A stretch of DNA of 64,000 bases, taken from NCBI GenBank assembly GCA_015852425.1, contig JAAAIG010000022.1:46006-110005 (forward strand), written 5' to 3'. A program made the position numbers and the translations under genes. Source of the DNA: Gryganskiella cystojenkinii (Eukaryota > Mortierellomycota > Mortierellomycetes > Mortierellales > Mortierellaceae). Below, piece by piece: positions 23,599 through 55,357 of this stretch (its first letter is position 1; each line of letters starts with the position of its first letter). The notes under the pieces are model-generated. The model did no database searches. It was not told the DNA's origin and saw only the letters and a program-made list of their open reading frames with translations.

Positions 23599-23924
23599 TT
23601 ATTTAGGTGGGATTCCCTTTTTGCAGCGAGCAGTGCAAGTACAGAAGTTCTCATCGCAGTAGGATCCAATGTTGCATCGAGGACAAACTGGTCCACCGGG
23701 GCAAGTGACACAGGCGACGGAATCTACATTGGCAACAGAGATAAACAAAGGGTTAGATTGATGAGACTTGACACTCGACACTGAATCTTTGACACAAGAC
23801 GTGAACCAGTAGGTCTGAGATGAGACGAACCAGGGTTGATGGCGGCGGCCTCGGCGGACATGACCATGAAGAGGATGGTCATCATGACGAACAACAAAGG
23901 GGTGAAGATCTTGAGGGCGTGCAT
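23599..23924 (-). CDS. Small secreted cysteine-rich peptide, copy A
   Basis: Exons 23924-23831 (94 bases) and 23723-23599 (125 bases) join at a phase-1 intron, giving 72 residues. Exon 1 is a near-complete signal peptide (KIFTPLLFVMMTILFMVMS, then AEAAAINP). Exon 2 encodes the mature part with eight cysteines spaced C-x2-C-x5-C-x2-C-x5-C-x4-C-x-C-x3-C and the tail KKGIPPK. A TATA-like TTTAAAAAGG (24012-24003) lies about 80-90 bases upstream of the ATG. Copies B and C lie downstream on the same strand with identical exon lengths. Eight cysteines in about 41 residues suggest four disulfides in the secretory path; metal binding through the two CxxC pairs is the alternative. I do not recognise the family. 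Confidence 0.85.
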
Positions 23925-24398
23925 TTTGAGTTGTTTGGCTGAGGATAAACTGTTGTTGGTTGAAGAATAACAAAAAGAAGTGGAAATGACCTAAACGATG
24001 TGCCTTTTTAAACAGATTTTGACCGCATCCACCACGCGTAAAATAACTGGTTATGAAAGTAAAAGAAATGCAACCAGTAACTACACCCCGCATTTGCAAG
24101 CCGTCTGACAAGAGCTCTCTCGAGATCTGGACCATTCTTTCGTTCACTTTGCTTAAAGGAACAAGCGATAAAAATGAATAAAATCGAATCAGGGTATGTG
24201 GGTCAATTGAAACGACGAAAAGTGTGCACGCAGAGCTTTCTGTTACTGCATACTGATGCGGTCCTAAGAAAACTATGGGAAAGTTCTCACGGTTCATCGA
24301 AAGTAAGATACCGCTGTCGTTCGTACATTTCAGTGGCGAACTGACCGATGCATACGAAAATTCGCTTTTCACCTATGAAGTGCTTTTTTTAGGGTCGC

Positions 24399-24407
24399 GG
24401 TCTAGAC
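24399..24407. promoter_or_regulatory. GGTCTAGAC palindromic motif 1
   Basis: One of four GGTCTAGAC sites seen between 24.4 and 30.7 kb, about 475 bases upstream of peptide copy A. Its recurrence only inside the peptide cluster suggests a regulator site; this is inferred. Confidence 0.35.
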
Positions 24408-24639
24408 AAATGCTCGATTATGCAAGTGAGAGAGAGAACTGTACAAAATCTATGCGAGGAAACGGTCTGGTCCCCTCCTGCATTGTTTGCCATTACACAC
24501 CTCATACCGCGTCAGCTTCGTGACCATTCACGTGCGCTCGGGTCGTCTGTTTGATCCTTCGAACTTTCCAATCTTGATTTCTTGGACTATGGTGCCACAA
24601 ATCAAACAAATAATTACAAATGTTGAAATCCAATAAGTC

Positions 24640-24680
24640 CGAAAATAGTGAACACGCTTTGCCGTGTGAATGATACATCC
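24640..24680. repeat. Duplicated upstream block, copy 1
   Basis: ACACGCTTTGCCGTGTGAAT here recurs at 27650-27672 in an equivalent position about 700 bases upstream of another peptide copy. Both are preceded, 110-140 bases away, by TACCGCGTCAG. Inside the block, ACACG and CGTGT form an inverted repeat. The pair points to duplication of the whole gene plus upstream region. Confidence 0.6.
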
Positions 24681-25726
24681 TGACTTTCAACTGTTGTGTG
24701 CTTCTTTGTTTGTTTTCTTTTAAGAGTGAACGGCTGTCCAAATCACCAAGAAAATCAAAACAACGACACCCTAGTTTCCATCGATGAAGGAAAAGAGGGA
24801 GGCGAGGACTTGGACACTTTCTCATGCACGAGAGCCTCGCCAAGAAAACAAACAAATGCTGCTGACCAAGGGCTTTATCGTGCACCGATGACAGCCACTC
24901 TTGTGTGTCAATTTTTGTTGAAGGATAAGACAGCAAGTTGGGATAGAGAAATTGAGGACCCCGATCAAGACATCTCCATTTTGTAAATGTGTCTTCGCTA
25001 CAACGTTTCAATCGTCTTTGACTATACTTTATACCCTTTTTCCTTTTTTTTCAGACCAGTTCATTTCAATGGGATGGCTAGAGAGCTCATGGAGTCGAGT
25101 TCGGCCGGGTTTTTTGTTTGTACTACAGCTGTCGAAGGAACTAATGTCACCCATGAGCGAACGACACCAAGAGAATATAACTTTGACCGCAAAAAAGACT
25201 GTGGAAAGTACTATGGTATCTCCAATTATTTTGCTCCTAAGCTACTCCTCCATCACTGTCTCGTAGCGTCAACATGAAGTCTTTCTCTCTCCTCGTCTTG
25301 GTCCGTTGGTTTTATCGGTTTAAGGGACACTACCGTTGTCCTAGCTTTTTTCCCTCATTCTCCCTCCTTCTTCTTCTTGGCTCGAGTGAGACACATACCG
25401 CATTATTTCAGGGTATTGCCATATATTGACCATAAATATACGTTTAGTCTAGCATACATACCACCTTTGCCGCTGTCCAAGACATCATTTGCCTACTCAC
25501 GCGTTCTCTTGTGTAATTTCTTACGCCCTATTGTTTTCGTTTTCTACTTGAATTTATCCGCCGATATTGATTTTGAGTTGAAATGAGTGACACAATGTAA
25601 TTCGTAGTCTGGTATTCGATTGGATAGGACGGATACAAGATGGAAGGAGAAGTTTGCTGTTTTATTTGTTTAAGGCGATAAAAACAGATTTGATATTCTC
25701 GCTGTCGATAACACACCGAGAATGTT

Positions 25727-26057
25727 TTACTTGGGTGGAATTCCCGTGACACAACGAGCGGAGCACGAGCACCAGTTCTCCTTGCAGTAGGATCCAAAGT
25801 CGCAATCTGGGCACTCGGGGCCATCGGGGCACACGGCGCAGGCGAGTTGATCTAAAATCATAGATTAAGATGGAAAACCTTGAGGTTAAGACTCGAGGGT
25901 ATGTACGTAATATTTCAAGAGATTTTAAAATGACAGAATCAGTGCCAGTAAACGAAAACGAACCAGGGTTGACGGCGGCGGCCTCAGCGGACATGACCAT
26001 GAAGAGGATAGTCATCATGACGAAGAACAAAGGGGTGAAGATCTTGGTGGCGTGCAT
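25727..26057 (-). CDS. Small secreted cysteine-rich peptide, copy B
   Basis: Exons 26057-25964 (94 bases) and 25851-25727 (125 bases), phase-1 intron, 72 residues. The signal exon differs from copy A at only 3 of 31 residues (KIFTPLFFVMMTILFMVMS core), while the 41 mature residues differ at 15. All eight cysteines, the Gly between Cys4 and Cys5 (DFGSY) and the GIPPK tail are kept. A TATAAAA (26137-26131) sits about 75 bases upstream. The signal peptide is conserved more than the mature region, suggesting diversification of the secreted product. The protein is probably extracellular; function unknown. Confidence 0.85.
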
Positions 26058-26130
26058 TGTGGATCGTTTGGGTGGGGATGAACGGTTGTTGGATTAAGAT
26101 GGCAAGAAAAATATGGGGACACCTTGTAGT

Positions 26131-26137
26131 TTTTATA
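26131..26137 (-). promoter_or_regulatory. TATA box of peptide copy B
   Basis: TATAAAA on the minus strand, 74-80 bases before the ATG at 26057. Copies A, C, D, G, H, I and J have TATA-like boxes at comparable distances. Confidence 0.55.
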
Positions 26138-26438
26138 ATGATACAAGTTGTGCTTGCTAAACGTCGATTGATCTAGACTCGAGTCTTTGTGTGCAGAAAA
26201 CTGTTTTCACTGAAATGTTCAATTGAAAGACAGAACATCTGCGAGTGCACAAAAAAAGAAGAAAAAAGAACAGATGAAGGAAATGAGTGCAGTACTGTCC
26301 TAAGAATGGAGCGGATTTTTGTTCATACGGCTCGATTGCTGAGACTAATTACCCTTCTCTCCTGTATCGCGCTTGGCTGAAATTTGCAAAGTTGACATCA
26401 AGACAAGTCTGTATGTTTTTGCTGTTAGAAGTTTTGAG

Positions 26439-26447
26439 GGTCTAGAC
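26439..26447. promoter_or_regulatory. GGTCTAGAC palindromic motif 2
   Basis: Same nonamer as at 24399, about 380 bases upstream of peptide copy B and just beyond the 3' end of copy C. Role inferred from recurrence. Confidence 0.35.
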
Positions 26448-26646
26448 GTTGTCGCTGATGCAACTGGAACGCACATGACTGTTGCAAACAAAAACTATCC
26501 GACGCTTGCGCTGCGCTGTACAGTGTTCCCATTCACTGAAAAAGAAGCTTTACAATTCTTATTTGGATTTTATATCTTTTATTGTTGACGCATCTGTTAC
26601 ATAATGGTAGATGAAGGGGCCTTTCATCGGCAAAAGACTCCACCTT

Positions 26647-26962
26647 TTACTTAGGTGGGATGCCCTTGACACAGAAAGCCGTGCAAGCGCAATTGTTTTG
26701 CTTGCAGTAGGTACCGAAAGGGCAGTGACCGCAATCGGGCCAGACGGGGCAGTTGGCGCAGGCAACTGAATCTGAGATGCAGGAAGAGGTTCAAACGATT
26801 TATGTTATTCTTTTATAGTGATACGAATGGGAGGTTAGACATTTGCTTACCTAAAATCAAGAACGAACCTGGCTCAATTGCGGCGGCATCGGTGGACTTG
26901 ACCATGAAGAGGAGGGCCATGACGATGAACATCAAAGGCGCAAAGATCTTGGCAGAAGGCAT
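26647..26962 (-). CDS. Small secreted cysteine-rich peptide, copy C
   Basis: Exons 26962-26869 (94 bases) and 26771-26647 (125 bases), phase-1 intron, 72 residues. The signal exon is more diverged (KIFAPLMFIVMALLFMVKS, then TDAAAIEP). The mature part keeps the exact eight-cysteine spacing of copies A and B, the Gly between Cys4 and Cys5 (PFGTY) and the KGIPPK tail. A TATAAAA lies at 27033-27027, 65-71 bases upstream. The same exon lengths in A, B and C show recent tandem duplication without length change. Function unknown. Confidence 0.85.
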
Positions 26963-27026
26963 AGTGGATCGGTGGAGTGTCGGTTATTGGGTGAGTAGGC
27001 AAAAGGGGATAGAGGTAGACAGACCG

Positions 27027-27033
27027 TTTTATA
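27027..27033 (-). promoter_or_regulatory. TATA box of peptide copy C
   Basis: TATAAAA on the minus strand, 65-71 bases before the ATG at 26962, in the context GTATAAAACGG. Confidence 0.55.
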
Positions 27034-27405
27034 CAAAATTCAAACAAATATTGGCGGATGAAATTATCCTAGTACAATTCTCTGGTAATCCGATAAATAT
27101 TTCGTAAAGTTACCATTCACAACGCCAGAATAAAAGACCTTTTACTTGCGATTGCGAACAAAAGTCGACAACACTGCTGTGAGAAAGCAAAAGTGGAAAC
27201 GATATTAGTTCGATCGTAAGCCTGTACAAGTTCGTACATGTAAGCAAACGAGCAAACGAGGGGAGGAGCTCAGTTCAGGGTAAAAGAGCTCTCACAGTTG
27301 ACGAAGGACAGGTACCGTGGACAGGTTCTTCGAATGCCGAGACCCCGAAAACGCAAAGGTTTGAACAGTTGTCTTTTTTTGCGCCAAGTCAAATTCTAGG
27401 GGAGG

Positions 27406-27414
27406 GGTCTAGAC
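27406..27414. promoter_or_regulatory. GGTCTAGAC palindromic motif 3
   Basis: Same nonamer, followed by AAA as at 24399, about 445 bases upstream of peptide copy C. The distance is similar to motif 1 before copy A (475) and motif 2 before copy B (380). Confidence 0.4.
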
Positions 27415-27644
27415 AAAAGGTCTCGGATGCAAGCGATATGCTTGGATCACAAACACAATGACCCCGACCACTATGCAGCGTACATCCATGGCTGAAAAGC
27501 TACACCTCTGCTTAAGGAGGAAAAGATCTCGTTCACCACGTACCGCGTCAGTTTCCACGAACTTGTCATTCTGAACGTTTACTCAAGCTCAAGCCTTCAG
27601 GTTTTCATATTTCAATGGACCGCAATATCACAACAAACCACACT

Positions 27645-27680
27645 ATGGACAACACGCTTTGCCGTGTGAATCATGCAAGC
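27645..27680. repeat. Duplicated upstream block, copy 2
   Basis: ACACGCTTTGCCGTGTGAAT matches the block at 24640-24680, with TACCGCGTCAG again 110-140 bases before it. It lies about 690 bases upstream of copy C, as copy 1 lies about 730 bases upstream of copy A. Confidence 0.6.
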
Positions 27681-28088
27681 TCTCATTCGGTTGTTTCCTT
27701 TGGCGTGCTGTAGCAAATTTAGTCGTCTAAACAAAAACAAAGTGCGCATTGAAGCTCTCTCTCGTTTTCATCTTCGGTTGGGAAGAAAAAAATAAGAGGG
27801 GGGAGATGGACAACTTTTTCTGATATGCGTGAGAGCTTTTGTAAAAGCAAACAAATTTGGAGGGATAATATTTTCCTTTCCCGTTTAATTTGTGAGAAAA
27901 TCGTGACCTCGACCCAGACAGGACATGTCTGTAATCAAATAGCGACTATTTTTTTACTGGACTGACGTAATAGATCTCGGGTGAAGATTGACAAAGGACT
28001 AAAAAAAGCAACTTTCGACAGTCGAGTTGGATAGGACTCATCCTTTTTGGGTCTACAGTTGGTCTCGACGACAAATGTACCATGGGGA

Positions 28089-28096
28089 TATAAAAT
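28089..28096 (+). promoter_or_regulatory. TATA box of peptide pseudogene D
   Basis: TATAAAAT, 95 bases before the ATG at 28184. The promoter survives although the coding part is degraded. Confidence 0.5.
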
Positions 28097-28183
28097 GATC
28101 GCGAGAACAGCAGGCTGGCTGGATCTTCAACCCGACTCTACTTTATTTCACTCGAGAAAAACGTTTCTCAGTATGAAGACAGT

Positions 28184-28470
28184 ATGAAGGATTTCTCTAT
28201 CGTTGCCTTTGCTGTCGCTCTCGTTGACTTCGCTAGGGCCGTAGCTATTCCAGGTATATTGATTCATTTTTTTTTTTTTGCGTTATTATTTTCGAAGAGG
28301 ACAAGGAATGAAACTCAAGTCCTATTTACAAAAAAATTGGCAGAAATAGAGACTAGGCTTGCGCTGTCTGCCCCATGGTCCCCGTTGACCCAAATGCCTC
28401 TCGGGTTATACTTCCTAGAGAACGCAGGCGGTTGTTCTGCTAGCCTCCTGCAGAATCGGCTGGAGCCTTA
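28184..28470 (+). pseudogene. Degraded cysteine-rich peptide gene, copy D
   Basis: Exon 1 (28184-28253) still encodes a start and a hydrophobic segment (FSIVAFAVALVDFARA, then VAIP) and ends at a phase-1 donor like the intact copies. The expected second exon begins at about 28350 after an AG and can be aligned by eye with copy F at 31464. It has lost a base near the start of the mature part and carries further changes, so the frame breaks and most cysteines are gone. The apparent read-through frame (LALSAPWSPLTQ) has none of the pattern. Orientation is plus, opposite to copies A-C. Confidence 0.55.
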
Positions 28471-29614
28471 CTTTGACGTGATAAATAACAAACAACGAAG
28501 AAACTTTCTGATAGGAGAAACCTACTGTCCCCTCGTCCTCTCTGCCTATTACATCTCGCTTGTGTATAGGCAATTCAAAATATAAAAAATGAGTCTTGTA
28601 CTTTCCAACTTGTACAGTACTTTGGTGTTTCTTGATGATGCTAATTCTGGGAGGGAGGGAGGGAGAGAGAGAAAGAGAGAAAAAGGAAAGAGAGGAAGAC
28701 GCTCTTTGCACCATCAGACACCCTTTCACACGCGTGACAAACACGTTTGTCTCCTTTCACAGCAAAAAAAAACATAGCCGTTTGGGTGTGTCAGAAGAGC
28801 CCGTTGATATCTCCTGCGTGAGTCAGGAACAGAGAGAAACTACGCAGGGGGCTGTAGCAACATGCAGCTCTTCGATTTTTTGCGTTGAAAGCAGAATTGA
28901 TCGAATCCAAAGCCAAACTTGCTCTCCCGAGATGTTTTCTTATTTCTTTGTTGTCGATCGCAAATCTGAAGAACCAATCGATCGCATGAGAATCCATGCA
29001 TACCCACAATTCGATTGTCCGTTCTTTTTTTTTTTGACAGGTCACTCTTGTGATCAGGCAGTGATTCTGGCCTTTTTTATTCTCTTGAAATCTAAGGTAG
29101 CACAAACAGAGCCTATTTTTTTTGTTTTAAGCATGACTTCTTCACCAATGGTGTTGTGCTGTACAACTCCTTTCCGAATGAAAAATTGATAGCAACTAAA
29201 GAGCTCCTTTTACTAAAAATAAAGAAGGGAAGAGTACATACATGAAGTTGGCCTAGACTAGAGGCACTCCCCCATTTCCACAGTTTTGTCGCTTTGAGGG
29301 GCAAGGTGTCGCAAACACCTTTGAATCTCGTTAGATGTTAATAGATCTTTCGTTCTTGCTCTCAATCCAAACGTTCTGATATGAGGCATTACCGAAGAGA
29401 AGGAAGGAACCCATTTTTTCGTTGCTCTTTCGAGATTTTGTAAACAAATTGCAACGCATGTATGAGAGAAAATGCCTTTAATCAGTAAGTTTCTCTTCGG
29501 AATGGAACTCGAATCCTTCCTTTTTTTGAATAGTCTGAAGGGGAACCACTGCGTAGTCCTGCTTTTTGCTGATCATCTTTACCCTACCACCTCAAGATTC
29601 ACTAAGAGGAAAAA

Positions 29615-29920
29615 ATGTTCGCTTCCAAATCCATCCTTGTTCTTGTCATGACCATCCTCATAGTCTTGGCGCACGCCAACGTTGAAGCCGCCACGATTCC
29701 AGGTTCGTCCTGAAACACCAAGACCGCCCGTTGTTTGCGCTTTCTAATGAATAATCAAATCGAAATGATATCTAACGATGATCCTCGTTAAATAGATGGT
29801 CGCGCCTGCGTTCCTTGCCCCGTCATGCCTCGTTACTCTCCTCGATGCCCCGGTGGCTCCTATTACTAGAATGATTGTGCCTGCACCGCTCGTTGTGTCA
29901 ACTTACTCCCACCCAAGTAA
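29615..29920 (+). pseudogene. Cysteine-rich peptide gene, copy E, with in-frame stop
   Basis: Exon 1 (29615-29702) encodes an intact signal peptide (KSILVLVMTILIVLAHA, then NVEAATIP). Exon 2 (29796-29920) is 125 bases, exactly as in copies A-C, and starts in phase. It has a TAG at 29867-29869 in the middle of the mature part, right after a Tyr (TAC) where the family has a Cys (TGC). Beyond the stop the same frame continues (CACTARCV) to the normal PPK end and TAA. The third family cysteine is also missing (PRYSPRC). Point mutation without length change suggests recent inactivation. Confidence 0.7.
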
Positions 29921-30669: not shown

Positions 30670-30679
30670 GGTCTAGACC
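30670..30679. promoter_or_regulatory. GGTCTAGACC palindromic motif 4
   Basis: A perfect 10-base palindrome, about 625 bases upstream of peptide copy F. It is the most complete of the GGTCTAGAC series. Confidence 0.4.
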
Positions 30680-31295: not shown

Positions 31296-31591
31296 TTGTA
31301 CGCCGCCAAGTCTTTCCTCGTCCTCGCTATGGCTATCCTCTTTGTGGCCAACGTTGGAGGCGCCACGGTCCCAGGTTCGTACACGGAGCCTCGCTTACTA
31401 ATAGCCAATTTCAGCTCCGCATAATGTAAAAACAGTATTTCGACTCTTTTCTGTTTGCCATAGAGACCGAGGCTTGCGTCTCCTGCCCTGTAGTTCCCCG
31501 CTACCCTCCCAGGTGCTCCATCGGCTCCTACTGCGATCCCAACAAATGCACTTGCCAAGCTCGTTGCATCAAGGGAATCCCACCCAAGTAA
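31296..31591 (+). pseudogene. Cysteine-rich peptide gene, copy F, start codon lost
   Basis: By alignment with copy E, exon 1 should start at 31296-31298, which reads TTG instead of ATG. An in-frame TAG lies further upstream with no ATG between. The signal core (KSFLVLAMAILFVA) and the phase-1 donor (31374) are intact. Exon 2 (31464-31591) is fully open, with seven cysteines, SIGSYC and the GIPPK tail; Cys3 is replaced in the PRYPPRC segment shared with copy E. Translation from the internal ATG at 31329 would leave only about 15 residues of signal. It is either a start-loss pseudogene or an unusual non-ATG gene. Confidence 0.6.
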
Positions 31592-32623: not shown

Positions 32624-32630
32624 ATAAATA
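32624..32630 (+). promoter_or_regulatory. TATA-like box of peptide copy G
   Basis: ATAAATA in the context GCATAAATAG, about 80 bases before the ATG at 32710. Confidence 0.45.
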
Positions 32631-32709
32631 GTGGTAGTATCGTCGCTCTCTTCCTCTCACCAGACACCACCGAACCCTCCCCCCAAAAACAACAACCAAA
32701 CCAACCACC

Positions 32710-33004
32710 ATGCTTGCCAACAAGACCTTCACCCATCTGTTCTTCCTTATCATGACCATTCTCGTCATGGTCATGTCTGCCAATGCTGCGATTGCTTCAG
32801 ATTCGACTGGTATGTTGCAAAAATCCGAGAAAGAAAAAAGCAGTTGACATTAAGATAACCCTAAGTTTGTTCTACCGACCTTATCTTTTAGCTTGTCGTA
32901 TGTGCACTGAACCTCCAGAGTGTCCCCCTTGCCCTTTCGGCTGGCACTGCACCTTCAGACCATGCACTTGCCTCGGCATCTGTGTCGCCGGCGCTGGTTT
33001 ATAG
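32710..33004 (+). CDS. Small secreted cysteine-rich peptide, copy G
   Basis: Exons 32710-32809 and 32892-33004, phase-1 intron, 70 residues. The signal peptide (KTFTHLFFLIMTILVMVMS, then ANAAIA) resembles copies A, B and H. The mature part has the exact eight-cysteine spacing C-x2-C-x5-C-x2-C-x5-C-x4-C-x-C-x3-C, with PFGWH between Cys4 and Cys5. The GIPPK tail is replaced by VAGAGL. It is on the plus strand, opposite to A-C. Predicted secreted, disulfide-rich, function unknown. Confidence 0.82.
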
Positions 33005-33897: not shown

Positions 33898-34241
33898 ATG
33901 GCTGCCTCCAACAAGACCTTCACCCCTTTGCTCTTCCTCATCATGACCATACTCTTCATGGTCATGAGCAGCTTCACAGTCCAGAGCGCTGTCATCCCCA
34001 GTAAGTGTTTTTGTTCCTTCACACTTCGCGCTCAAAGTCGACCATATCTTTTTAAACTTCGCTGATACTAACGAACTCACACTTGTCTCTCACCTATTTT
34101 CTGTTAGACCCTCTTGCCAGAATCGAGTGCCATATCTGCGATGAACAGCCGTTCTGCTCTCCTCCTTGTACTTATGGCCATTACTGCAGCATCGACGACT
34201 GCCGCTGCAGTGCCACCTGTATGTACGGAGACATCCCCTAG
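33898..34241 (+). CDS. Small secreted cysteine-rich peptide, copy H
   Basis: Exons 33898-34000 and 34108-34241, phase-1 intron with GTAAGT donor, 78 residues. The signal peptide (NKTFTPLLFLIMTILFMVMS) is almost the same as in copies A and G. The mature part has eight cysteines; the Cys3-Cys4 gap is three residues (SPP) instead of two, and the rest of the spacing is kept, with TYGHY between Cys4 and Cys5. It ends MYGDIP. A TATA-like ATAAATA lies at about 33837-33843, near 55-60 bases upstream. Copies G and H are adjacent and in tandem. Confidence 0.82.
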
Positions 34242-44922: not shown

Positions 44923-45236
44923 AAAATACAAAGGCTCTATTTTTTTATTTACCTCCAGGAACAGTCGAACGAAAAGGTCGAGAGATGATGATCGGCGGGC
45001 AATATCCATATAGCATGCGGAACCAAGCGGATGAAAATGCACTAAAAGCAGCCATTCGAAATCAAAGCACCAACTGCATTCGTCCAAACATAATAAAGCA
45101 GCTACTTCATAGACGAATCGATAATGACCAACTGGCTGCATATTTTAATTTTCTGGATGATTGGTAATGATGATGCATTGTACATATTTTATGTATTATT
45201 ATTTTTTGAACGGGTAGGATATTGCCCCAGTCAAGT

Positions 45237-46211
45237 TCAGTGCTTCGTCGTGGTACCAGGTGCATATTGTTGCTGTGAGAGTGAGTACTGGGGAGGAGCA
45301 TGATCGCTTGATGAACCCGCTGCATAGGCTGCCTGTTGACGTGCTTCGCGTTCTTCTTCTTCATAGTATTCTTGAGTCGGGGCTGTGGGCTCAGCAAGAG
45401 GAGCGTGCACTTGACCACCAGCGACATTCGAGGTCCTTGGTGCGTATTGCTGTTGCTGTTGTTGCTGTCCCTGTTGTTGTTGTTGTTGCTGTTGTTGCTG
45501 TTGTTGCTGTTGTTGTTGTTGCTGTTGCATGCGCTGGATCTGTTTCTTTTGGATCTCTTGGGGTGTAGGCTGAGGGACCAGAGCATTAGCCATGACAACG
45601 AGTCGACCTCGGATACCCTTTGGCGCGTTTGGGTCCTTTTTGCTTCGGAGGCCTTTCAATAGGCCACCGCCGCCGCTGTTGTTGCAATTGTCATTACTAC
45701 AATTGTCGTAACCACTGCTGTATCCATTGTTGTAACCATTTGGGCTATTGGTGTAGCCATTACGACCATTGTTGTAACCGTTAGGGTCATTGTTGTAATC
45801 ATTCGAGCCGTTGTTGTATGCGTTGGGGCTGTTGTTGTATCCATTCGGACCATTTGCGTGATATCCGTTTGGACCGTTGTTGTTGTTGTTGTTGCTGTTG
45901 TTGTACCCATTGTTGGGTCCGTAATTATATCCTTCGCCAGTATTGTAACCGTTCTGGCTCTGGTTTTGGCTCTGTTTGTTGTTCTGGGTCGAGTTGGCGA
46001 TCGCGCCGATCAGACCGCTGATCAAACCTCCACGTCGGTGGCCTCCTCCGAGTCCACCGAAATTGTTGTTGGGTGCCATGGGTTTGAAAGGTGGGGGTGG
46101 TGGTGGGAGAGGTTCGTAGATGTTGTAACCAGTTCCGTCGAAACCAGGGTTGTTGTAGTGATTGAAGCTGTTGTTATTTTTGTTGTTGTTACTGTACGCG
46201 TTGCCTTGCAT
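45237..46211 (-). CDS. Asn/Gln/Gly-rich prion-like protein
   Basis: A single open frame of 324 residues. It starts MQGNAYSNNNKNNNSFNHY, then has a PPPPPP segment, a short basic patch (GHRRGGLISGLIGAIANS) and a run of about fifteen degenerate tandem repeats of the form GPNGYNN. A basic segment (KGLRSKKDPNAPKGIRGRLVVMANAL) follows, then a poly-Gln tract (residues about 228-250) and a Tyr/Glu/Ala-rich tail. The composition is like yeast prion domains and RNA-granule proteins. No folded domain is recognisable. It converges with the metaxin gene, 314 bases between stops. Confidence 0.7.
   Translation of the reverse strand: MQGNAYSNNNKNNNSFNHYNNPGFDGTGYNIYEPLPPPPPPFKPMAPNNNFGGLGGGHRRGGLISGLIGAIANSTQNNKQSQNQSQNGYNTGEGYNYGPNNGYNNSNNNNNNGPNGYHANGPNGYNNSPNAYNNGSNDYNNDPNGYNNGRNGYTNSPNGYNNGYSSGYDNCSNDNCNNSGGGGLLKGLRSKKDPNAPKGIRGRLVVMANALVPQPTPQEIQKKQIQRMQQQQQQQQQQQQQQQQQQQGQQQQQQQYAPRTSNVAGGQVHAPLAEPTAPTQEYYEEEEREARQQAAYAAGSSSDHAPPQYSLSQQQYAPGTTTKH
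45461..45535. repeat. CAG/CAA microsatellite encoding poly-Gln
   Basis: A run of TTG/CTG triplets on the plus strand encodes the poly-Gln tract of the Asn/Gln-rich protein. It is likely length-variable between strains. Confidence 0.8.
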
Positions 46212-46917
46212 GGGTAACTCGAATGGGTGGAAGACTTTTTTTTAGTTATACGTTTGTTAAAGGAGTAGGAGGCAGGTGCTGTAGAGGGTTGGAAAGTAAA
46301 ACGACTTGATGGTTGATGAGAAGACTGAGGGGAAAAGAGGCAAATCTCTGGGCTTTTAAAGGGTCAAAGGGCCTGATGTCGAACTTGTTGCCAAGAAACT
46401 CGAGCCATGTATCAATCAACCACCTGCCTTTCTCGTCCAAGAAGGAAGAAAAGAACACATAAGGCCGAGATTGGGCTGAAGTTAGTGCTAAATGTGTCGT
46501 CGTTGTAAAAAATAATCATGACAATCAGTGTGGCTGCAGTCTCTGCAGGATCGTGCAGAGACATGACGCAGAGGCGAACTAAGGAAGAGACGAGGCTGAG
46601 TTCCTCCCCCTGCCAAAAAAAGAGGCTAAATCGATTTAACGTTGAAGCGGATCTCCTTATCCAACAGTATTATTTGTTGTGGCTCTTCTTCGATATGATT
46701 AAAATTCAAAAAGACGGATGAAATAATTCTCCCGGGAGACGGAGGACGTTCTACTTTTTCTATTCCTCTTCTTCTTCTTCATCCCATAGCACTTTGCGCC
46801 AAGGGTCACTTAGACAGGGATTAAAGTCAATGAATTTACTTGTATTCATAAACGAGAAGAATAGACTGCTCGCAGCGTAGAATATATATTTACAAATATG
46901 GACCATTGACGATTTGT
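46212..46917. other. Region between Asn/Gln-rich gene and SulP gene
   Basis: About 700 bases hold the promoter of the Asn/Gln-rich gene and the 3' end of the transporter gene. The short frames here have no recognisable content. Confidence 0.5.
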
Positions 46918-49789
46918 TCAATAATCGTCATCATCCGTGTTGGTATGCAACGAGTCCGAGAACACGGGTCGCTCCATTCCAAAGAAATTGGCTATCCGTT
47001 GACCCCATTCCGTCCGCATCATCCTCCGCTTCCAATCCGCGCCTCTCGAGACTGTGGATGCGCCTGAGGTCGATAGACGCACACCTCCTCCATTACCACT
47101 GCCACCACCGGTCGTGCGTCTCCTCCGATTATTATTACTCAACAAGGAACCTGCGACTTCCTCGGCACCCAAGACACCAGCAGATTGACTCATTCTCCTA
47201 CCAGTAGTAGATCGACGACGCTGCCCTGCGAGGAGTGGACCATCCCGATCATCGATTTCACCATCGCGGCTAAAGATAAAACTGTGTGCGGTGGAGAGCA
47301 AAACAACCAGGATACCGATTGCAATCCCGAGCTCGACACTGACGATCAAGACACCCAAAAACGTCACACTCCAGATCACACAGGCCTTGCGTTGTCCCAG
47401 ACGCCACAGCTTGAACGGTTCCGTGATCTGCATCACTAGGGACTGCAACGCGACCAAGACGATCGCAGCTAGGACGGTGTTGGGGACCCGTTCAAAGCAC
47501 CAGGTCAAACTGATCAAGGTCAAGACCACGGTCACGACACCCACCATACTTGCCAGCGGCGTCTTACCGCCAGACTGGGCCAGGATTGCGGTTCGAGTCA
47601 AGCTACCTGTACAGGCATACCCACTAAACATGGTTCCACCGACAGAGGCTAGACCAAGGGCAAACATTTCCTGGTCCGGATCGACCTTGTAACCGTAGCG
47701 TTTTCCAAACTGTTTTGCGATTGAGAAGGACATGACATAGACAATCACGGCAATCAGGAGCGCGGGTTGGAGCATGGGCAAGACCACATTCTTGAGAAAC
47801 TCGACTGTCATCCATTCCTTGGCGCCGCCAGTGGTGATCAGGTTGGGCGGGAAGGCAAAATGAGGAAGACCTTTAGGGATGAATCCAATCACGTCAATGC
47901 CAAGGCCTCCCTCAGATTGAGGTCTATCCAATGAAAATATCACGTTCACGAGCGTGAGTAGGATGACCGCCATGAGAATATCGGGAATCGGAATATAGAC
48001 TTGTCGGTCCTTTGGTGACGGTGCGACGGCCAATGTGCTCGTCAGGGCTTCCTCGGTGTCGCTGAGTGTTCTTGAGGCAGACGGTGCAAACGTAATCGAG
48101 GGGCCAGCTCTACTACCGTTTCCATTCTCCTGATTGTCTGTAACTGTTCTCAGAGAGATATTGGAGGCGAGGGCATCAGCAGAGGTTGATTGAATATAAG
48201 GCGAAATCGGTCCGTCTCGTCTCGAGTCTAAGTCATCGCCACCGTGGCTTCCTCCGTCCTGCTTTTGTTGTTGCTGGAGTTGCCATTGTCGTTGCTGCCG
48301 ACGTTGCTCCTCATGACTACGGATGACCGCTGCCGAGACTGCTTGACGTTGTTGGACCAGAAATAATTCCTTTTTGCGTTGATGAAGTTCATACTCGGCT
48401 TTGCGCTTCCGCTCCAGCTTGCGCATCATGAGCATAAACAAGATGGCGATCGATCCTAAACCAACTGTGTACCAATTCGTCTCTGTCCAGAGGTTCTCGC
48501 CAATCCACTTCCAGGATTTCAAGAGTGCAAAGGCTCCCTGAGCGGAAGGCATATTCTTCAGACCCAAAAAGTGTTTCAGTTGCGATGTTCCGATGTGAAA
48601 GACTGCTGCAGTGTTGAACCCTCCGACGAGCGCATCAGGCAAGAGATGTTTTGAGGCCCACCCGCCAACCCTCAAGAATGACATCACAATCTGGACCAAC
48701 CCAACGACAAGAGACAGCATCAGGATCATGCCGATAAATCGTCGTTCCGAATCCGGGTCCGTATAGGCTGAATTAGTGGGAGAGGACTGTGTATCGTAAA
48801 GGAGTGTGTTGGTGAGGCTGTAGTTGTCGAGAGATCCCTCTGGGGGGATCACGCCGTCCTGTCTCGCCATCAAGCCACGAACAGCTTGGCCAAGTAGTAA
48901 CGTTGTGATGGCAAACGTACCCGTATGCATATGGCGACTGGTACCAAAGAGGCAGTAGATGAGAATTGGGACGACTGAGGTGTAGAGACCATAGACGGGA
49001 GGGAGAGGTGCCAGCATTGCATAAGCCATGCTCTGAGGGATGACGACAGTGGAGATGGCTGTGAACGAAGAAAAAAAATGAAAAAAATAGGGGGAATACA
49101 CGATTGTAGTGTTAGCACCATTGAAGTCGACAATACTACTCATAAGAGAGGGATGATAGCCATAATTTTTCGTCCGTCAAGCTTGGCTCGGACTTACTAA
49201 TGCCAGCAATAAGATCATCTGGGAGGTCCTGAAGATTGTATCCCGGTGAGATCAACCATCCAAACACTGGGAGCCGCTTCCGTAACCAGGTCTTCCAGCA
49301 GGATTCTCGCTTGACCAGGAGCTCAGAGTCTTCCAACACGACTGCCGAGTTGGAGCGAGGGTGAGCATGTAAGGGTGCAGTTGTTTCGATCAGAGAAGTA
49401 CGCCCCCCTTGAGGTTGTTGTGACAATCCAACTGTGGTGGCAGAGTTGCGAAGATAATCGGTCGAGACGCGTCTGCCGGGTGGGAAATCGTCGGTGCTGT
49501 AGGCTCTCGACATGCGTCTCGCGGGAGTACCGCCGACACCGTCGTTGACGTGGTTGAGTCCACCGAGGGAACTGACACTCTCGCCACTGTCACTTGAAGT
49601 TGAGGTGGAGCTCTCACCCCGGATACTACTGGCTCGACTGCTTCCTGCGCTGAAGTCATTTGTGGAACCGTTGGGCGAGAGTGTCAAGAAGTTTGGATCT
49701 GCTGTGGTCGATGATCCTCGTGCTGGTCCTGGACTAGGAAGGACTTCTTGTTGATCCTGTGTGTCGCCCGGTGGCGTGCCTGGAGGCAT
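46918..49789 (-). CDS. SulP-family anion (sulfate) permease lacking a visible STAS domain
   Basis: Exons 49789-49198 and 49058-46918, phase-1 intron, 910 residues. The N-terminal 150 residues are disordered and Ser-rich. Then come the SulP signature VIPQSMAYAMLAPLPPVYGLYTS and many membrane segments (about 10-14), including GTFAITTLLLGQ, GGTMFSGYACTGSLTRTAI and LGIAIGILVVLLSTAHSF. A 150-residue Gln/Ser-rich loop splits the membrane domain. Family members carry sulfate or other anions across the plasma or vacuolar membrane and usually end in a STAS domain. Here the membrane part is followed only by a Ser/Arg/Gly-rich tail of about 110 residues, so the STAS domain appears absent. Confidence 0.88.
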
Positions 49790-50256
49790 TTAAAGGAGAG
49801 AGATAGAGAGAGTGGGATAAAGAGGGATCGAACGACTGTAAAGGAACAGAAACGGAAGGAAAAGAAGAAAGTAAAAAAGTGAGGTGCAGAAAAAGAGCTG
49901 TGTTCAGAAAAGAGAAAGCATATAAAATAAAATAAAAAAAGTTCTGCAAGGGGGAAAAGAGAGAGAGAAGGCGATAGTCAGGAGAGAAGAGACAGAAAAG
50001 GGATCAGGTCAAATGGATCCTTTTCAATGAGGGATGCAAACGCACGCAACAGCAGGAATGAATGGAATGACAGGGAACAAAGAGAAGGAAAAGGAAAAAG
50101 GGAAGTGTGGTGGGGCCAATGGAGATTAAAAAAATATTTCTTTCCTTGGAATCCATTCAGCGACAGCGGGCAATGAAACCATGACTCGCTTGGCATAGAT
50201 TCATTTTCCTTCCTTCATTACATTCACTCTTCAGCATCACCATCACTCGAACAGTC
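49790..50256. promoter_or_regulatory. Divergent promoter: SulP permease / glutaredoxin-like gene
   Basis: 467 bases between two divergent starts. The SulP-side half is purine-rich (49800-49980). No other gene is seen. Confidence 0.5.
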
Positions 50257-50929
50257 ATGTCCTCATCCCTCTTGCGACTGACCCTCTTCACAAAGGCAAA
50301 CTGCGGCCTCTGCACCACGGCCAAGGAGGCCTTGACGCGGGTGCAAACGAAGGTTGGTGATTTTCTTTCATCGTGTGTTCTTTACCTTCTTTTGTCTTTT
50401 TTTTTGGGTGTGTCAGAAACCTCAATGCTCTCAATCGTGTCCCATATCGATCTCGGGTGGGGTAGTGTGGTGTTTCTTTTCTTTTTCACGGGCGCGATGT
50501 GTTTCGATCTGGATAGGATTGATATGTGCCGCTATCTCTCCTTTGAATCCGTGGCGCCAAACTTCTGTCTCCTTTCTGACATTCAAAACTGTTACGGCAT
50601 GATTACTTTTTTGGGGGGGTCGGAACAGTCTCGATAAAGCCCAAAGCCCCAAGCACACAACCTGGTGAAAAAGACATCATCTTTCGACCGAATGGCACAA
50701 ACTAAAACAACGCTTTATGTTCTTTCGTCCGTGCTTTTTTTAGGTCCCTTTCCACCTCGATCAAGTTGACATTTACGCTCCTGGCAAAGAAGCCGCTCAA
50801 AAGTACATGTTTGATGTGCCCGTGGTCGAGTTGAACGGACGCGTGGCGATGATGCATCGAATCGATGAGCCCAAACTGATTGACATTCTACGACAAGAAG
50901 TCGACAAGTCTGGGTCTACCAAAGCATGA
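50257..50929 (+). CDS. Glutaredoxin-like DUF836 protein (YDR286C type)
   Basis: Exons 50257-50352 and 50744-50929, phase-0 intron, 93 residues. The thioredoxin-fold start LTLFTKANCGLCTTAKEAL contains the CxxC redox motif. It is followed by VDIYAPG and the family block FDVPVVELNGRVAMMHRID, matching yeast YDR286C and human C5orf63. The family is a small single-domain thiol protein of unresolved substrate, often predicted mitochondrial. The intron is long (391 bases) for this window. Confidence 0.9.
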
Positions 50930-51522
50930 ACGGCTGGCCAACATCCCCCCGCCCATTCTTCACCCTTTCCCAATAAAAATAATCTTGTCCCTTGACCTTC
51001 TCAAGGACCCACATTCAAAAGTCGAAAAGAAAAGGTTTGTTGGTCTGCGAAAAATGAGAAGACAAAAATTTCTTTGTGCGACTGACGACTGATGGCGTGA
51101 GCAGGAAAAGGAGTACTATCATTTAGTCACAAAAATCATTTGACCCTAGTGCAGCTCTATCAGACCAAAAAAAGCCCCCCTTCTACCGAGAAAACAACAC
51201 TGTCCTTTGATTCGGCCCCTTTTCGCATGGTCCAAGTTACCCCCACAGAATTGGTACAATAGTGCCACGCTTTTTTCCTGCTCGGACTTCGCCTTGTCAG
51301 CAAAAGAACTCGTGAACATGTTTGCTGTTTTGCTCCAATCGACCCTCCCCTATTTTAAGTCCGTTAAAGACAATGTGTTCCTCCCCGAGGCTAAAAATGA
51401 TGACAATTGTCGGGTGTGATGTGTTGTGGTTCTTTTATGTTCCTCCGCAAAATATATAGTCCTAGGCGTGATTCAGTCAACATGCAAGAAAATCGTCTAC
51501 AGATCCTTTTTAGGAAGACTGT

Positions 51523-51924
51523 TCAGTTTCCTGCGGTTGGTGTTAAAGGCGCTGTCTCTACCGGTGCTGATGATCCAGCTGTTTGACCTGCTTGCCGTCT
51601 GGCTGGATCAAGCTTATCCTCCATAGCATCGCTGATATACAATCCTACTAGTGAGAACGCCATTCCGCCTAGAAAAGCCACAAAAGGTCAAAAAAATGAT
51701 CCACAAACCGTCTTGGTTAGTAGTTGACTTTGATCCTTGCAAAGAGTTCTCTTCTTCTCTTTGCTATGACTCCGACCAGTCGCGTTGATAAATCGAGTCT
51801 TACCGAGTCCGATGTACATTCGCGTGCGAGGAGGCAATGCCTAAAATGCCCGGACGAAATTCATAAAGTATAATAGGTGAGTTTGTGTTGGCGACCAACT
51901 GTTTGTTACGACTGCAAAGCCCAT
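51523..51924 (-). CDS. 65-residue single-membrane-segment protein
   Basis: Three small exons (51924-51910, 51840-51804, 51668-51523) join in frame through short introns (GTAACA...TTTTAG and GTAAGA...TTCTAG) and make 65 residues. The start is MGFAVALPPRTRMYIGL. One membrane segment (about residues 13-31, ending LVGLYISDAMEDKL) is followed by a polar Pro/Thr-rich tail. The LPPRTR then GLG then LYISD pattern recalls a small fungal mitochondrial membrane protein I cannot name. The coding parts are too short to appear as long frames, but phase, splice sites and hydrophobic profile agree. Function unknown. Confidence 0.65.
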
Positions 51925-52613
51925 TGAATTCTCTGTCCTCTGTCCTGGTAATTATTGTTATTCATTGTCCAGTTATGTCCGTCCTGATGGCGCCGTGAGG
52001 TGGCTTTGTTCCATGTTTGTTCCTCCTGCCCTGGTATAATACCTTGTATTGTTGCCACATGGACGCCATTGTCGAGTCTGAAAAGATCAATCAAAAAAGA
52101 GTCAAATTGAAATGTGTTCTGCCAAGTTATGTTCCCGTTTGAAAGTCACATGACCAAATTGCCACCAATTTATCTCTAGAAGTCTCTTTTTTTCGCGTTT
52201 TTGACAGTCGATAACAAAGAAGCCAGTGGAAAATCACAGCAGGAACCAAAAAAATACAAGATTTGCAACTCTATTGCCTCATCGGAAGGGAGTATTTCCA
52301 TCCTACACAAGGGGTATTTCAAACGACCTTACCTCTTTCGGCTGATCGTGAACGTTGGACACAAACAGCCAAAGTTGTACATTATTAAAGAGTTTACCCA
52401 TCGAGAGTGCATGCATGATCATCGAAGGCAACGCTGTTGAAGGGCAAAACTATTGTAGACTATATACCTAGCCCTTTTTGCACGGACGTACGGAACGCTG
52501 ACCAACCTCTTTGTGCACGTTTTGCGCTGTCGCGGAGAACCCGACATGTATGGGTCGATTGAAAAAAAAAACGACTAACGCATCTAAGAAAGAAGGAAGG
52601 GACGAAAATCTGC

Positions 52614-52620
52614 TTAAATA
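52614..52620 (+). promoter_or_regulatory. TATA-like box of peptide copy I
   Basis: TTAAATA, 87-93 bases before the ATG at 52707. The spacing resembles the other peptide genes. Confidence 0.4.
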
Positions 52621-52706
52621 CTGCATTCCGCTCCTGCAACTCAATCGGCGGACAAACTCTTTCAACCAAAACCACCTTCCCATAACCCAGATCACCAACA
52701 ACTAAT

Positions 52707-53096
52707 ATGCTTTTCAACAAGTCCTCTCTCGTTCTCGCCGTCGCTGCCGTCTTCATGGCCGCCATTACCGCCGCCGTCCCCTCTGGCAAAGGTAAGCTTA
52801 ATAGGTAGAATCATCGGACTTTTGTTACCTTTCGAGCATGCGGAAGAAACTATTCTCTAGTTTCCACGCTGCGTTACTAACACGGCGACCCATCACTCGC
52901 ATCTTCTAAAATCTGTCGTTTTTTTCTCCTGATTCACATCGCCCATCATACCATCATAGGCCACATCGACATGTGTGTCATTTGTGAGGTCGTTGTCGAG
53001 GACGTTGATCTCATATCCCTCTGCGGTACCTGCCCTGTCGGCTATATCTGTCAGTGGAACGGTTGCCTCTGTCGAGGTCTATGTGAAATAGCATAA
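52707..53096 (+). CDS. Small secreted cysteine-rich peptide, copy I
   Basis: Exons 52707-52791 (85 bases) and 52960-53096, phase-1 intron with GTAAGC donor, 73 residues. Signal peptide LFNKSSLVLAVAAVFMAAI then TAAVP. The mature part has eight cysteines, C-x2-C-x12-C-x2-C-x5-C-x4-C-x-C-x3-C. The only departure is a seven-residue expansion between Cys2 and Cys3, which is acidic (EVVVEDVDLISL). PVGYI between Cys4 and Cys5 keeps the family Gly. It lies 18 kb from the main cluster. Its first exon matches copy J in length (85 bases) and start (FNKS). Confidence 0.8.
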
Positions 53097-55020
53097 ATGG
53101 GCTTTAATAGCTCTTCCGAAAATACATGTCTTTTTCTCTTGAGAAAGAGATAATAAGAGATGAAATAGCTACTCACCTGTGTTTTTTCTTCACCAGTCAC
53201 TGAACGCTGTGAGAAATCATTGTTTGTCCAGCTGGACTCAGAAATTGCTGCAACCCCCCCCAAAAAAAAACAACAGCAATTTCGCGTGTGAAGGACTCTC
53301 GAAACAGACGCGATGAAAAATGGACCTTTTTCTTTCTCTCTTTCTTTTTCTTGTTTGCAATTGACCCTGTGAAAGAATGCAGCAGACCACCTTGTTTGTT
53401 AGAAAGAAAATATTTACCGGTCCCATAAATAACTCATTTTGTGGAAGCTCCGAGTCAAAGCCGCATGGACAAAATCTCGAGTTCAAGAGGGAGAAACCGT
53501 CATGTTTTTTACTCTTTCGGGACAAAGAACGGATTCACCCAACAACACGAACACAGTTTTGGAGCGAGATCAAGAGACATGGAAAGTTGTGGATCGTGAT
53601 TGTAACAGGCAAAAAGAAGTAATAAACGAAGCAATGACGGTATTCAATCAGAGTTGGAGATAGGGCTGTCTACTATACGAAATCTCGAGCTGACTGAAAC
53701 AAAATAGACGAGCTCGAGGGGGGGGGGGGGCGGGGGGCCTTGGCCACGGTTGAAAATTTACGCAGAAACGAAAGACCAAAAAAAGATAAAAGGTGAGCCG
53801 ACAGATATTTTGCTCACTTGCATCGTTTTGTTTTATGCAACGATCATGAGTAAGCAAACAAATGCTTTGATGACAGTTGCAAACAAAACTCCCGCATGCT
53901 TCAATACATGATGAAAGAACTTGTTCTAGGCCAGAGAATGCGACGATGGAGGTTGGGCGTGTGAAAAAAAACCCCCACTAAAAATCAACCCTCATGATGG
54001 TGATGATATTTTTTTTTTTTTTGGAGAAACAAGGCGCAAACGACTCTGATTCAGGCGCGAGGCACGACGCAAACGAAAAGCAATCGGGACAGACAAACAA
54101 ACAAGCACCTTTATGTCGTAGTGACCAATAAGACCGCGAGTTTGAGAAACATCAAGTCCAAAAAAAACTTCTTGAAAGCTTCACGGGAGAGTTTTACTGG
54201 GACAGGATGGCGCTTGATTGGCATGTATACGCCCCGAGGTACGAAAACGCGTGACAGGACAAGGCAGAAATCAATGAAAAGAGGCGGACACGTATCTCTC
54301 TTGACAATAGAACTTTTGGATCTTGTGAAATCGATTCCACGCATAGGTGTGTGAACACAAAGCTCACCAAACGAGGGCAACGCCTTTTTTTTTTTTTTTG
54401 TTCTGGGTAGGTCATCAACATCCAATCTGTCTCAAGAAGCCATCTGACTAAACACGCTTTTTTTTCCATCCCGAAACTCCAAACAACGCTGAGATTCTTT
54501 TTCTTGTGTTTTGGAGATGCAATGCATGAATTGCCACCGACATTTCTATTGTTGTGTTTGTTTTTTTTCTTTTAACTTATTGAGCCATCGATATCAATTC
54601 AAAGTAAGGCGTGGCCTTGGGAGCACTGACCCAGGCAAAGGGAAACGGAAGAGCTCTTTTCTTCTGCGCGTGCGCGTGTGTTTGTTTCTTGCTGGGGTCT
54701 AGAATTGAATCCTTTTGCCCGGGGTGGGCCAGATGTTTTCCTTGGCAGGCGCACACAACCGCATTCGTCAGATGATGGCAAAATAATGGAGACTTGAAAA
54801 AACACGCTGAGAGAATATTCCCAAGAAGAGCATCTAAAACAACACAAGTACACCGCGAAAAATCGATCAATCGGCACAACATTCTCTTGACAAAGAACCA
54901 CTCTTAGTGTTCACGCTGATCAGAGTTGCCTCGAAGAAAAAAAAACTATAAAAGTACGACCTCTTCCTCTATCTTAAAAAAATCCTCACCCGACTACCAC
55001 CCGAACCCAACAAAACAACA
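53097..55020. other. Region between peptide copies I and J
   Basis: About 1.9 kb with no supported gene. It holds a G run (13 G, one C, 6 G) at about 53718-53738, several poly-A/T runs, and GGTCTAGA at 54696-54703 about 320 bases upstream of copy J. GTTGCAAACAAAA near 53875 also occurs near 26483 in the main cluster. Confidence 0.5.
54947..54954 (+). promoter_or_regulatory. TATA box of peptide copy J
   Basis: TATAAAAG, 67-74 bases before the ATG at 55021. It is the clearest TATA box of the family. Confidence 0.6.
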
Positions 55021-55357
55021 ATGTTCTTCAACAAGTCCACCCTTCTTGCCGTCGTCGTTGCCGCGCTCATGGTCATCTCCACCACCGAAGCTGCCGCTCT
55101 CCCTGGTAATAAAAATAAATGGATTAGTCGAGATGGTATCGCCTCAATGAGGTTGGAAACCGAACCGTTAGACTACGAACACTAACTCGGATCTTGTTTA
55201 TTTCTATTTTATTCAACAAAAAAAATGTATGACAGATGCTTTGGCCTGCCGCATTTGCGATGGAGACCTGGACTGCGGTGATTGTCCCAAGGGTCAATGG
55301 TGCTATATCAACAGTTGCACCTGCATCGCTCGCTGTGTCTCCGGCCCCATCCCTTAA
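55021..55357 (+). CDS. Small secreted cysteine-rich peptide, copy J
   Basis: Exons 55021-55105 (85 bases) and 55236-55357, phase-1 intron, 68 residues. Signal peptide FFNKSTLLAVVVAALMVIS, then TTEAAALP. The mature part begins DALAC like copies A and B and has the exact spacing C-x2-C-x5-C-x2-C-x5-C-x4-C-x-C-x3-C, with PKGQW between Cys4 and Cys5 and the end SGPIP. With copy I it forms the outlying pair of the family. Predicted extracellular and disulfide-rich; no function assigned. Confidence 0.82.

What the first reader, a model, noticed from the sequence alone, without database searches (positions are those of the whole stretch)
23599..55357. Undescribed family of small secreted eight-cysteine peptides, ten loci in 32 kb
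Ten two-exon loci (A-J) share a signal-peptide exon, a phase-1 intron and a second exon coding for C-x2-C-x(5 or 12)-C-x(2 or 3)-C-x2-G-x2-C-x4-C-x-C-x3-C. Seven are intact. The Gly between Cys4 and Cys5 is present in every intact copy. I know no named family with this exact scaffold; antistasin-like and granulin-like domains share cysteine richness but not the spacing. Candidate roles are antimicrobial, signalling, symbiosis-related or metal-binding; none is shown by the sequence.
Basis: partly seen in the sequence, partly recalled or inferred. Interest (0 to 1): 0.9.

Follow-up and report, generated by a model that had tools for sequence, protein, structure and literature searches.

The report
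Secreted cousins of a yeast sensor domain
A soil fungus carries a cluster of ten genes and gene remnants for tiny, apparently secreted eight-cysteine peptides that look like free-floating, shortened relatives of the outer domain of Opy2, a fungal signalling protein; what they do is not known.

Summary
The window is from Gryganskiella cystojenkinii (Mortierellaceae). Seven loci (A, B, C, G, H, I, J) are intact two-exon genes for 68-78 aa, predicted secreted peptides with C-x2-C-x5(12)-C-x2(3)-C-x2-G-x2-C-x4-C-x-C-x3-C. E and F are broken; D is a doubtful remnant. A, B, C and G are already GenBank hypothetical proteins.
'No named family' is only partly right. The first half of the motif is that of the extracellular eight-cysteine domain of Opy2 (PF09463). 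Five of eight mature sequences match it, all below Pfam's cut-off, against 1 of 40 Cys-fixed shuffles. Searched against the whole 35-Mb genome, G's best non-self match is an Opy2-domain peptide gene (BGZ83_011449) that passes the cut-off and has the same leader exon and phase-1 intron. Other Mortierellaceae have leader-bearing proteins with one or two Opy2 domains and, by eye, no membrane anchor. The window family is best read as a divergent, locally expanded offshoot with shortened C-terminal loops. It is not Opy2 itself. Kinship rests mainly on G; locus I alone shows none. Function is inferred: extracellular binding peptides. Structure prediction did not finish.

The parts
23831..23924 (-). 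Locus A exon 1 (leader); GenBank BGZ83_004169
23599..23723 (-). Locus A exon 2 (mature eight-Cys peptide)
25964..26057 (-). Locus B exon 1; GenBank BGZ83_004170
25727..25851 (-). Locus B exon 2 (mature peptide)
26869..26962 (-). Locus C exon 1 (GenBank BGZ83_004171 model runs to the other donor, 26851-26962)
26647..26771 (-). Locus C exon 2 (mature peptide)
28184..28253 (+). Locus D, putative exon 1 of a doubtful remnant; broken exon-2 trace near 28357-28386
   Evidence: read; frames; one search gives no significant profile match
29615..29702 (+). Locus E exon 1 (pseudogene)
29796..29920 (+). Locus E exon 2, in-frame TAG at 29867-29869, Tyr in place of Cys3
31296..31374 (+). Locus F exon 1, no ATG at the expected start
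31464..31591 (+). Locus F exon 2, open, seven Cys (Tyr in place of Cys3)
32710..32809 (+). Locus G exon 1; GenBank BGZ83_004172
32892..33004 (+). Locus G exon 2; closest member to Opy2-domain peptides
33898..34000 (+). Locus H exon 1 (no protein returned by the database searches)
34108..34241 (+). Locus H exon 2 (x3 between Cys3 and Cys4)
52707..52791 (+). Locus I exon 1 (no protein returned by the database searches)
52960..53096 (+). Locus I exon 2 (x12 between Cys2 and Cys3; most divergent)
55021..55105 (+). Locus J exon 1 (no protein returned by the database searches)
55236..55357 (+). Locus J exon 2 (mature peptide)

Best explanation
The ten loci are a lineage-specific tandem expansion, in Gryganskiella cystojenkinii, of small secreted peptides descended from the Mortierellaceae family of free-standing Opy2-type eight-cysteine domains. 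Shown from sequence: gene architecture, hydrophobic leader, invariant 8 Cys plus Gly, clustering, purifying selection in A, B and C. Supported but not proven: common descent with Opy2-domain peptides (same first half C-x2-C-x5-C-x2-C-x5-C, similar leader, same intron phase and position as in BGZ83_011449), with the second half shortened from C-x6-C-x2-C-x4-C to C-x4-C-x-C-x3-C. Inferred: the leader is cleaved, eight Cys form four disulfides, and the roughly 40-residue knot is released and acts as a soluble binding module outside the cell. The most likely target is a glycoprotein of the cell surface or wall, because the one member of the domain family whose binding I could trace, the yeast Opy2 CR domain, binds the extracellular domains of the mucin-type sensors Msb2 and Hkr1.
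For: Pfam Opy2 matches in 5 of 8 mature sequences (A 16.1, B 16.7, C 11.1, G 12.9, J 16.9 bits; cut-off 22.1), against 1 of 40 Cys-fixed shuffles of those five. G exon 2 against the 35-Mb genome: best non-self hit is the Opy2-domain peptide on contig C944, E = 0.0015, ahead of four cluster paralogues at 0.011-0.05. BLASTP of G against that protein: 40% over 47 aa, E = 3e-12 for one comparison. That protein (P0005 = BGZ83_011449) scores 28.8 bits against Opy2, over the cut-off, and its gene has a leader exon and a phase-1 intron one codon before Cys1, as in G. P0005 against the window mature HMM: 20.2 bits, 0 of 500 Cys-fixed shuffles. Cys-fixed shuffles against an Opy2-peptide HMM: G reached by 3 of 5000, sum over seven members by 5 of 5000, and by 6 of 5000 with P0005 left out of the model. 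Full-length hhalign probability 97.8%. Leader-bearing Opy2-domain relatives in Mortierella, Modicella, Lobosporangium, Linnemannia and Gamsiella. Opy2 CR domain binding to HMH domains of Hkr1/Msb2: PMC13233613, passages seen.
Against: No window member reaches Pfam's cut-off, and PF09463 searched in the own genome gives 4 matches, none in the window. F, H and I give no Opy2 match, and the scores of A, B, C, G and J drop when the leader is attached. Individually most members are unremarkable against Cys-fixed shuffles: A 110, B 431, H 745, C 1356, J 1607, I 4061 of 5000. In the reverse test, of 27 Opy2-peptide domains scored with the window mature HMM only P0005 beat all 500 shuffles; the other 26 were reached by 5 to 386. 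P0017 as query finds only C944, not the window; B finds 8 window loci and not C944; I finds only itself. The tree puts a branch of 3 changes per column between the two groups. Mature parts alone give hhalign probability 72.8%; part of the full-length score comes from hydrophobic leaders, which resemble each other by chance. No structure model, no expression data, no binding partner; no HMH-domain protein was looked for in this genome.
Confidence: 0.6

Rival explanations
1. An independent family of secreted cysteine-rich peptides that converged on the first half of the Opy2 cysteine spacing. Its function would be unrelated to Opy2, for example antagonism of other microbes or nematodes.
For: Sub-threshold Pfam scores; six of seven members individually reached by 2-81% of Cys-fixed shuffles; second-half spacing differs; local expansion and pseudogenes are common in antagonistic peptide families (general knowledge).
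Against: G and the family sum exceed nearly all shuffles. G's best non-self match in 35 Mb is an Opy2-domain peptide gene with the same exon structure. Net charge of the seven is -5 to +3, not the consistent positive charge of most membrane-active antimicrobial peptides.
Confidence: 0.22
2. Secreted metal-binding peptides (metallothionein-like) that use the C-x2-C and C-x-C motifs to bind metal rather than to form disulfides.
For: 18-21% Cys in the mature part with C-x2-C and C-x-C motifs; stray zinc-finger-type matches.
Against: A leader exon would route them through the oxidising secretory pathway. The zinc-finger hit is weak and in one of 8 members (H, E = 0.08). The yeast Opy2 domain is extracellular.
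Confidence: 0.08
3. Mostly decaying, unexpressed duplicates with no present function.
For: Three of ten loci are damaged; splice donors are GTTCGT in five; three intact loci had no protein returned by the database searches.
Against: Seven intact reading frames with all Cys kept. Exon 2 shows fewer amino-acid than silent changes per site in A-B, A-C and B-C (Fisher p = 0.0019, 2.4e-5, 0.0038; pairs not independent). TATA-like boxes lie upstream of intact loci (by eye).
Confidence: 0.1

Closest known systems
Mortierellaceae leader-bearing Opy2-domain peptides (BGZ83_011449 of the same species = P0005; Mortierella, Linnemannia, Lobosporangium, Modicella and Gamsiella proteins among P0006-P0019). 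Five of them (P0007, P0011, P0013, P0014, P0015) carry a UniRef name that begins 'Membrane anchor Opy2 N-t...' (cut off in the listings).
   Same: Short protein; hydrophobic leader starting M-x-x-x-[KR] in most; eight Cys with C-x2-C-x5-C-x2-C first half; no membrane anchor seen by eye; in BGZ83_011449 also the phase-1 intron just before Cys1.
   Different: Second half C-x6-C-x2-C-x4-C with a conserved block around I-I-P-A-x-C-x-D-C-G-S-G that the window family lacks; 7 of the 10 proteins scanned pass the Pfam cut-off, none of the window members does; nine have two or more domains in tandem, the window ones have one.
Opy2 (PF09463), membrane anchor of the yeast HOG and filamentous-growth MAPK pathways
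   Same: Extracellular eight-cysteine motif with matching Cys1-Cys5 spacing (compared with the Pfam model and with P0021, not with the yeast sequence itself).
   Different: Opy2 is a single-pass membrane protein with a cytosolic Ste50-binding part (passages); the window peptides end 3-7 residues after Cys8 and score below the family cut-off.
Antistasin-like and granulin-like domains
   Same: Cysteine-rich, secreted (recalled).
   Different: No match to either in Pfam scans of the window sequences at E up to 10 or among the 12 PDB sequences listed.

Membership tests
Opy2 domain (PF09463) | Score at or above the Pfam gathering threshold (22.1 bits) | tested here: not met
   Best of 8 mature sequences 16.9 bits; no window hit in the genome search
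Opy2 domain (PF09463) | Eight Cys with C-x2-C-x5-C-x2-C-x5-C in the first half | tested here: met
   A, B, C, G, J exactly; H has x3 before Cys4, I has x12 before Cys3, F lacks Cys3
Opy2 domain (PF09463) | Second half C-x6-C-x2-C-x4-C as in P0005-P0021 | tested here: not met
   Window: C-x4-C-x-C-x3-C in all seven; Opy2-peptide domains
Opy2 membrane anchor | Transmembrane segment and cytosolic Ste50-binding region after the eight-Cys domain | tested here: not met
   Stop codon 3-7 residues after Cys8 in the seven intact genes
Opy2 membrane anchor | Eight-Cys domain binds the HMH domain of Msb2/Hkr1 | not testable with these tools
   Reported for yeast Opy2 (PMC13233613, passages); no binding data here
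Mortierellaceae leader-bearing Opy2-domain peptides | Leader exon, phase-1 intron just before Cys1, eight-Cys exon, stop | tested here: met
   Same in BGZ83_011449 and in the seven window genes; gene structure in other species not seen
Mortierellaceae leader-bearing Opy2-domain peptides | Residue similarity beyond the cysteines | tested here: inconclusive
   Clear for G (3 of 5000) and for the family sum (5 of 5000); weak for A (110) and B (431); none for C, H, I, J taken singly
Membrane-active antimicrobial peptide (functional class) | Consistently cationic mature peptide | tested here: not met
   Net charge +3, -2, +2, 0, -4, -5, -1 for A, B, C, G, H, I, J; amphipathicity and activity not tested
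Four-disulfide knot | Eight Cys paired in four disulfides | not tested
   Two AlphaFold jobs had not finished at their last polls

The most novel reading that the evidence does not exclude
Mortierellaceae have turned the ectodomain of a MAPK-pathway membrane anchor into a family of soluble secreted peptides that bind mucin-type surface sensors on their own or neighbouring hyphae. They would act as extracellular ligands or decoys tuning filamentous-growth or osmotic signalling, with a diversified clustered set in G. cystojenkinii.
Probability: 0.12. Interest if true: 0.8.

Novelty: new variant of a known kind. Interest (0 to 1): 0.42.

Why it matters
Small cysteine-rich secreted proteins of early-diverging fungi are mostly filed as orphans (general knowledge). 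Linking this family to the Opy2 eight-cysteine domain gives it a testable hypothesis, binding to mucin-type surface proteins. It also suggests that proteins named 'Membrane anchor Opy2...' in Mortierellaceae can lack any membrane anchor and be secreted single- or multi-domain peptides.

Tried and rejected
Looked for other kin: PDB sequences by profile (best hits NKG2-D and a CCCH zinc finger, E = 0.032, on part of the cysteine pattern) and by the Opy2-peptide alignment (one hit, E = 0.63): rejected as chance. Moricin hits on leaders (E = 0.18 for B and G; 0.019 for P0015 and 0.18 for P0017) rejected as hydrophobic-leader noise. Ste50 SAM domain (PF09235) in the own genome: no match, but the tool's control also rang nowhere, so it says nothing. 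Literature: in ten searches I saw no listed paper on secreted Opy2-domain peptides; the species name gave 0 papers. Searches listed only 30 of 549 and 15 of 588 papers. [quoted passage not shown] irregularis), PMC13233613, PMC7776561, PMC6339444, PMC4759460 and PMC10597418; no paper was read whole. Positive selection on the mature peptide: rejected for A, B and C. Of the other 18 pairs, 12 are saturated at silent sites in exon 2 and in the other six dN is below dS, not tested. The 15-leader set contains P0010, whose model is truncated and has no leader; it was not removed, so leader scores there are slightly diluted.

Full report
What is there. The window is contig C243:46006-110005 of a 35-Mb genome. 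Four of its proteins are in the protein database as BGZ83_004169 to BGZ83_004172 of Gryganskiella cystojenkinii, a Mortierellaceae species. Seven loci encode complete two-exon products of 68-78 aa: A, B, C on the minus strand at 23.6-27.0 kb, G and H on the plus strand at 32.7-34.2 kb, and I and J at 52.7-55.4 kb. Exon 1 codes for a hydrophobic leader (judged by eye; no predictor was available). A phase-1 intron follows, and exon 2 carries all eight Cys. The regular expression gives 7 hits in the window and 0 in 60 dinucleotide shuffles. All eight Cys and one Gly are invariant in the seven. Profile scans of all window frames find exon 2 of A, B, C, F, G, H, I and J plus the two pieces of E; D's remnant reaches only E = 0.73. 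E has an in-frame TAG, E and F have Tyr for Cys3, and F lacks an ATG start. H, I and J were not among the proteins returned although their words were in the query. GenBank's C uses another splice donor.

Setting. A-H lie together in about 10.6 kb. I and J follow after about 18.5 kb that includes fructose-1,6-bisphosphatase, a formyl transferase, a sulfate permease and a glutaredoxin-like frame, the last just below its Pfam cut-off (10 of 46 listed open frames scanned). Protein searches of the whole genome find further copies only here: 8 of 8 matches for B, 1 of 1 for I (itself), and for G 5 of 6, the sixth being the Opy2-domain gene discussed below. The tool scores only its best candidates, so these are lower bounds. 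TATA-like sequences lie upstream of intact loci: TATAAA in B, C and J (and D), looser AT-rich forms in A, G, H, I (read by eye). A and B are nearly identical in exon 1 (silent divergence 0.11) but not in exon 2 (1.13) (Fisher p = 0.0007), which suggests exon-1 conversion. Exon 2 is under purifying selection in A-B, A-C and B-C. Of the other 18 pairs, 12 are saturated and six have dN below dS (not tested).

Kinship. Pfam scans of the eight open exon-2 products (including F) give Opy2 (PF09463) in 5 of 8, at 11.1-16.9 bits with a cut-off of 22.1. With leaders attached, the scores of these five fall to 8.7-12.9. Of 40 shuffles of A, B, C, G and J with cysteines held in place, 1 matched Opy2, so the signal is not cysteine spacing alone. 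In the genome, PF09463 has 4 matches and passes its cut-off once, on contig C944. That gene has a leader exon, a phase-1 intron one codon before Cys1, and an exon with C-x2-C-x5-C-x2-C-x2-G-x2-C-x6-C-x2-C-x4-C and a stop. It is BGZ83_011449 (P0005). Searching G's exon 2 against the whole genome gave 6 matches; the best after itself was this gene (E = 0.0015), ahead of B, J, H and C (0.011-0.05). G against P0005 by BLASTP: 40% over 47 aa, E = 3e-12 for the single comparison.

How strong it is. Against an HMM of 27 Opy2-peptide domains, Cys-fixed shuffles reach the real score in 3 (G), 110 (A), 431 (B), 745 (H), 1356 (C), 1607 (J) and 4061 (I) of 5000; the sum over the seven is reached in 5 of 5000, and in 6 of 5000 with P0005 removed from the model. 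The sum treats paralogues as independent, which they are not. In the reverse direction P0005 scores 20.2 bits with the window mature HMM and beats all 500 shuffles; the other 26 domains are reached by 5 to 386 of 500. Leaders: against class-order-preserving shuffles G 1, B 4, H 20, C 22, J 25, I 28, A 90 of 500. Full-length hhalign 97.8% probability, mature parts alone 72.8%; an earlier run on fewer sequences gave 98.0% and 82.8%. An unrooted tree of 21 rows (7 window, 14 Opy2 peptides; P0010, P0020, P0021 and the C402 frame left out) separates the two groups with 97/100 support on a branch of 3.0 changes per column. So G carries most of the evidence and the others follow through their clear relation to G. 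I is the least certain.

The wider family. Three searches of about 5.8 billion proteins: the window alignment returned only its own four proteins; with the C944 gene and a C402 frame added, 9 proteins; the Opy2-peptide alignment, 17. Fourteen of 17 have a leader, judged by eye, and one or two domains; P0010 has four domains by Pfam and a truncated start. Of 10 scanned, 7 pass the Opy2 cut-off and 3 lie just below (19.6-21.7 bits). Only P0021, of unnamed source, shows a downstream membrane-spanning segment like real Opy2 (by eye). UniRef names for five of them begin 'Membrane anchor Opy2 N-t...', which misleads.

Mechanism. In yeast, Opy2 is a single-pass membrane protein whose extracellular cysteine-rich domain binds the HMH domains of the mucins Hkr1 and Msb2 and whose cytosolic part binds Ste50 (PMC13233613, passages seen; related passages in PMC10597418). 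The primary paper on the eight-cysteine motif was not held; I saw only its title in reference lists. By analogy, I infer that the window peptides are soluble, disulfide-bonded binding modules outside the cell. Whether the target is a self sensor, the wall, or another organism is open. Charge from -5 to +3 speaks against a uniform membrane-lytic role.

Verdict. It is not a member of Opy2 proper (cut-off, second-half spacing and membrane anchor tested and not met). It is best called a new variant of secreted Opy2-type eight-cysteine peptides.

Noticed in passing
L003/L004 (G000:C402:641-748 and 1680-1775), L005 (G000:C568:23083-23184): Further Opy2-like loci in the same genome, below the Pfam cut-off; the C568 copy lacks two cysteines, and the C402 (641-748) and C568 copies seem, by eye, to have their own leader exon.
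   Followed up: partly
23831-23924 and 25964-26057: Exon 1 of A and B is 94% identical while intron and exon 2 are 58% and 69%: likely gene conversion of the leader exon.
   Followed up: partly
26851-26869: GenBank's model of locus C uses a downstream splice donor (GTAAGC) and inserts six residues before the mature peptide; the family-consistent donor is GTTCGT.
   Followed up: partly
24401, 26172, 26441, 27408, 30672 and 54697: TCTAGAC, on either strand, occurs at six places in the window, five between cluster genes A-F and one upstream of J; it may be a shared regulatory or repeat element. No significance test was made.
   Followed up: no
45237-46241 (-): Open frame of 334 codons in a stretch of simple repeats, read by eye as rich in Asn and Gln tracts.
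   Followed up: no
P0010 (Mortierella sp. GBAus27b): A protein with four Opy2 domains by Pfam and a start that looks truncated; eight further relatives (P0006, P0008, P0009, P0011-P0015) have two domains.
   Followed up: partly
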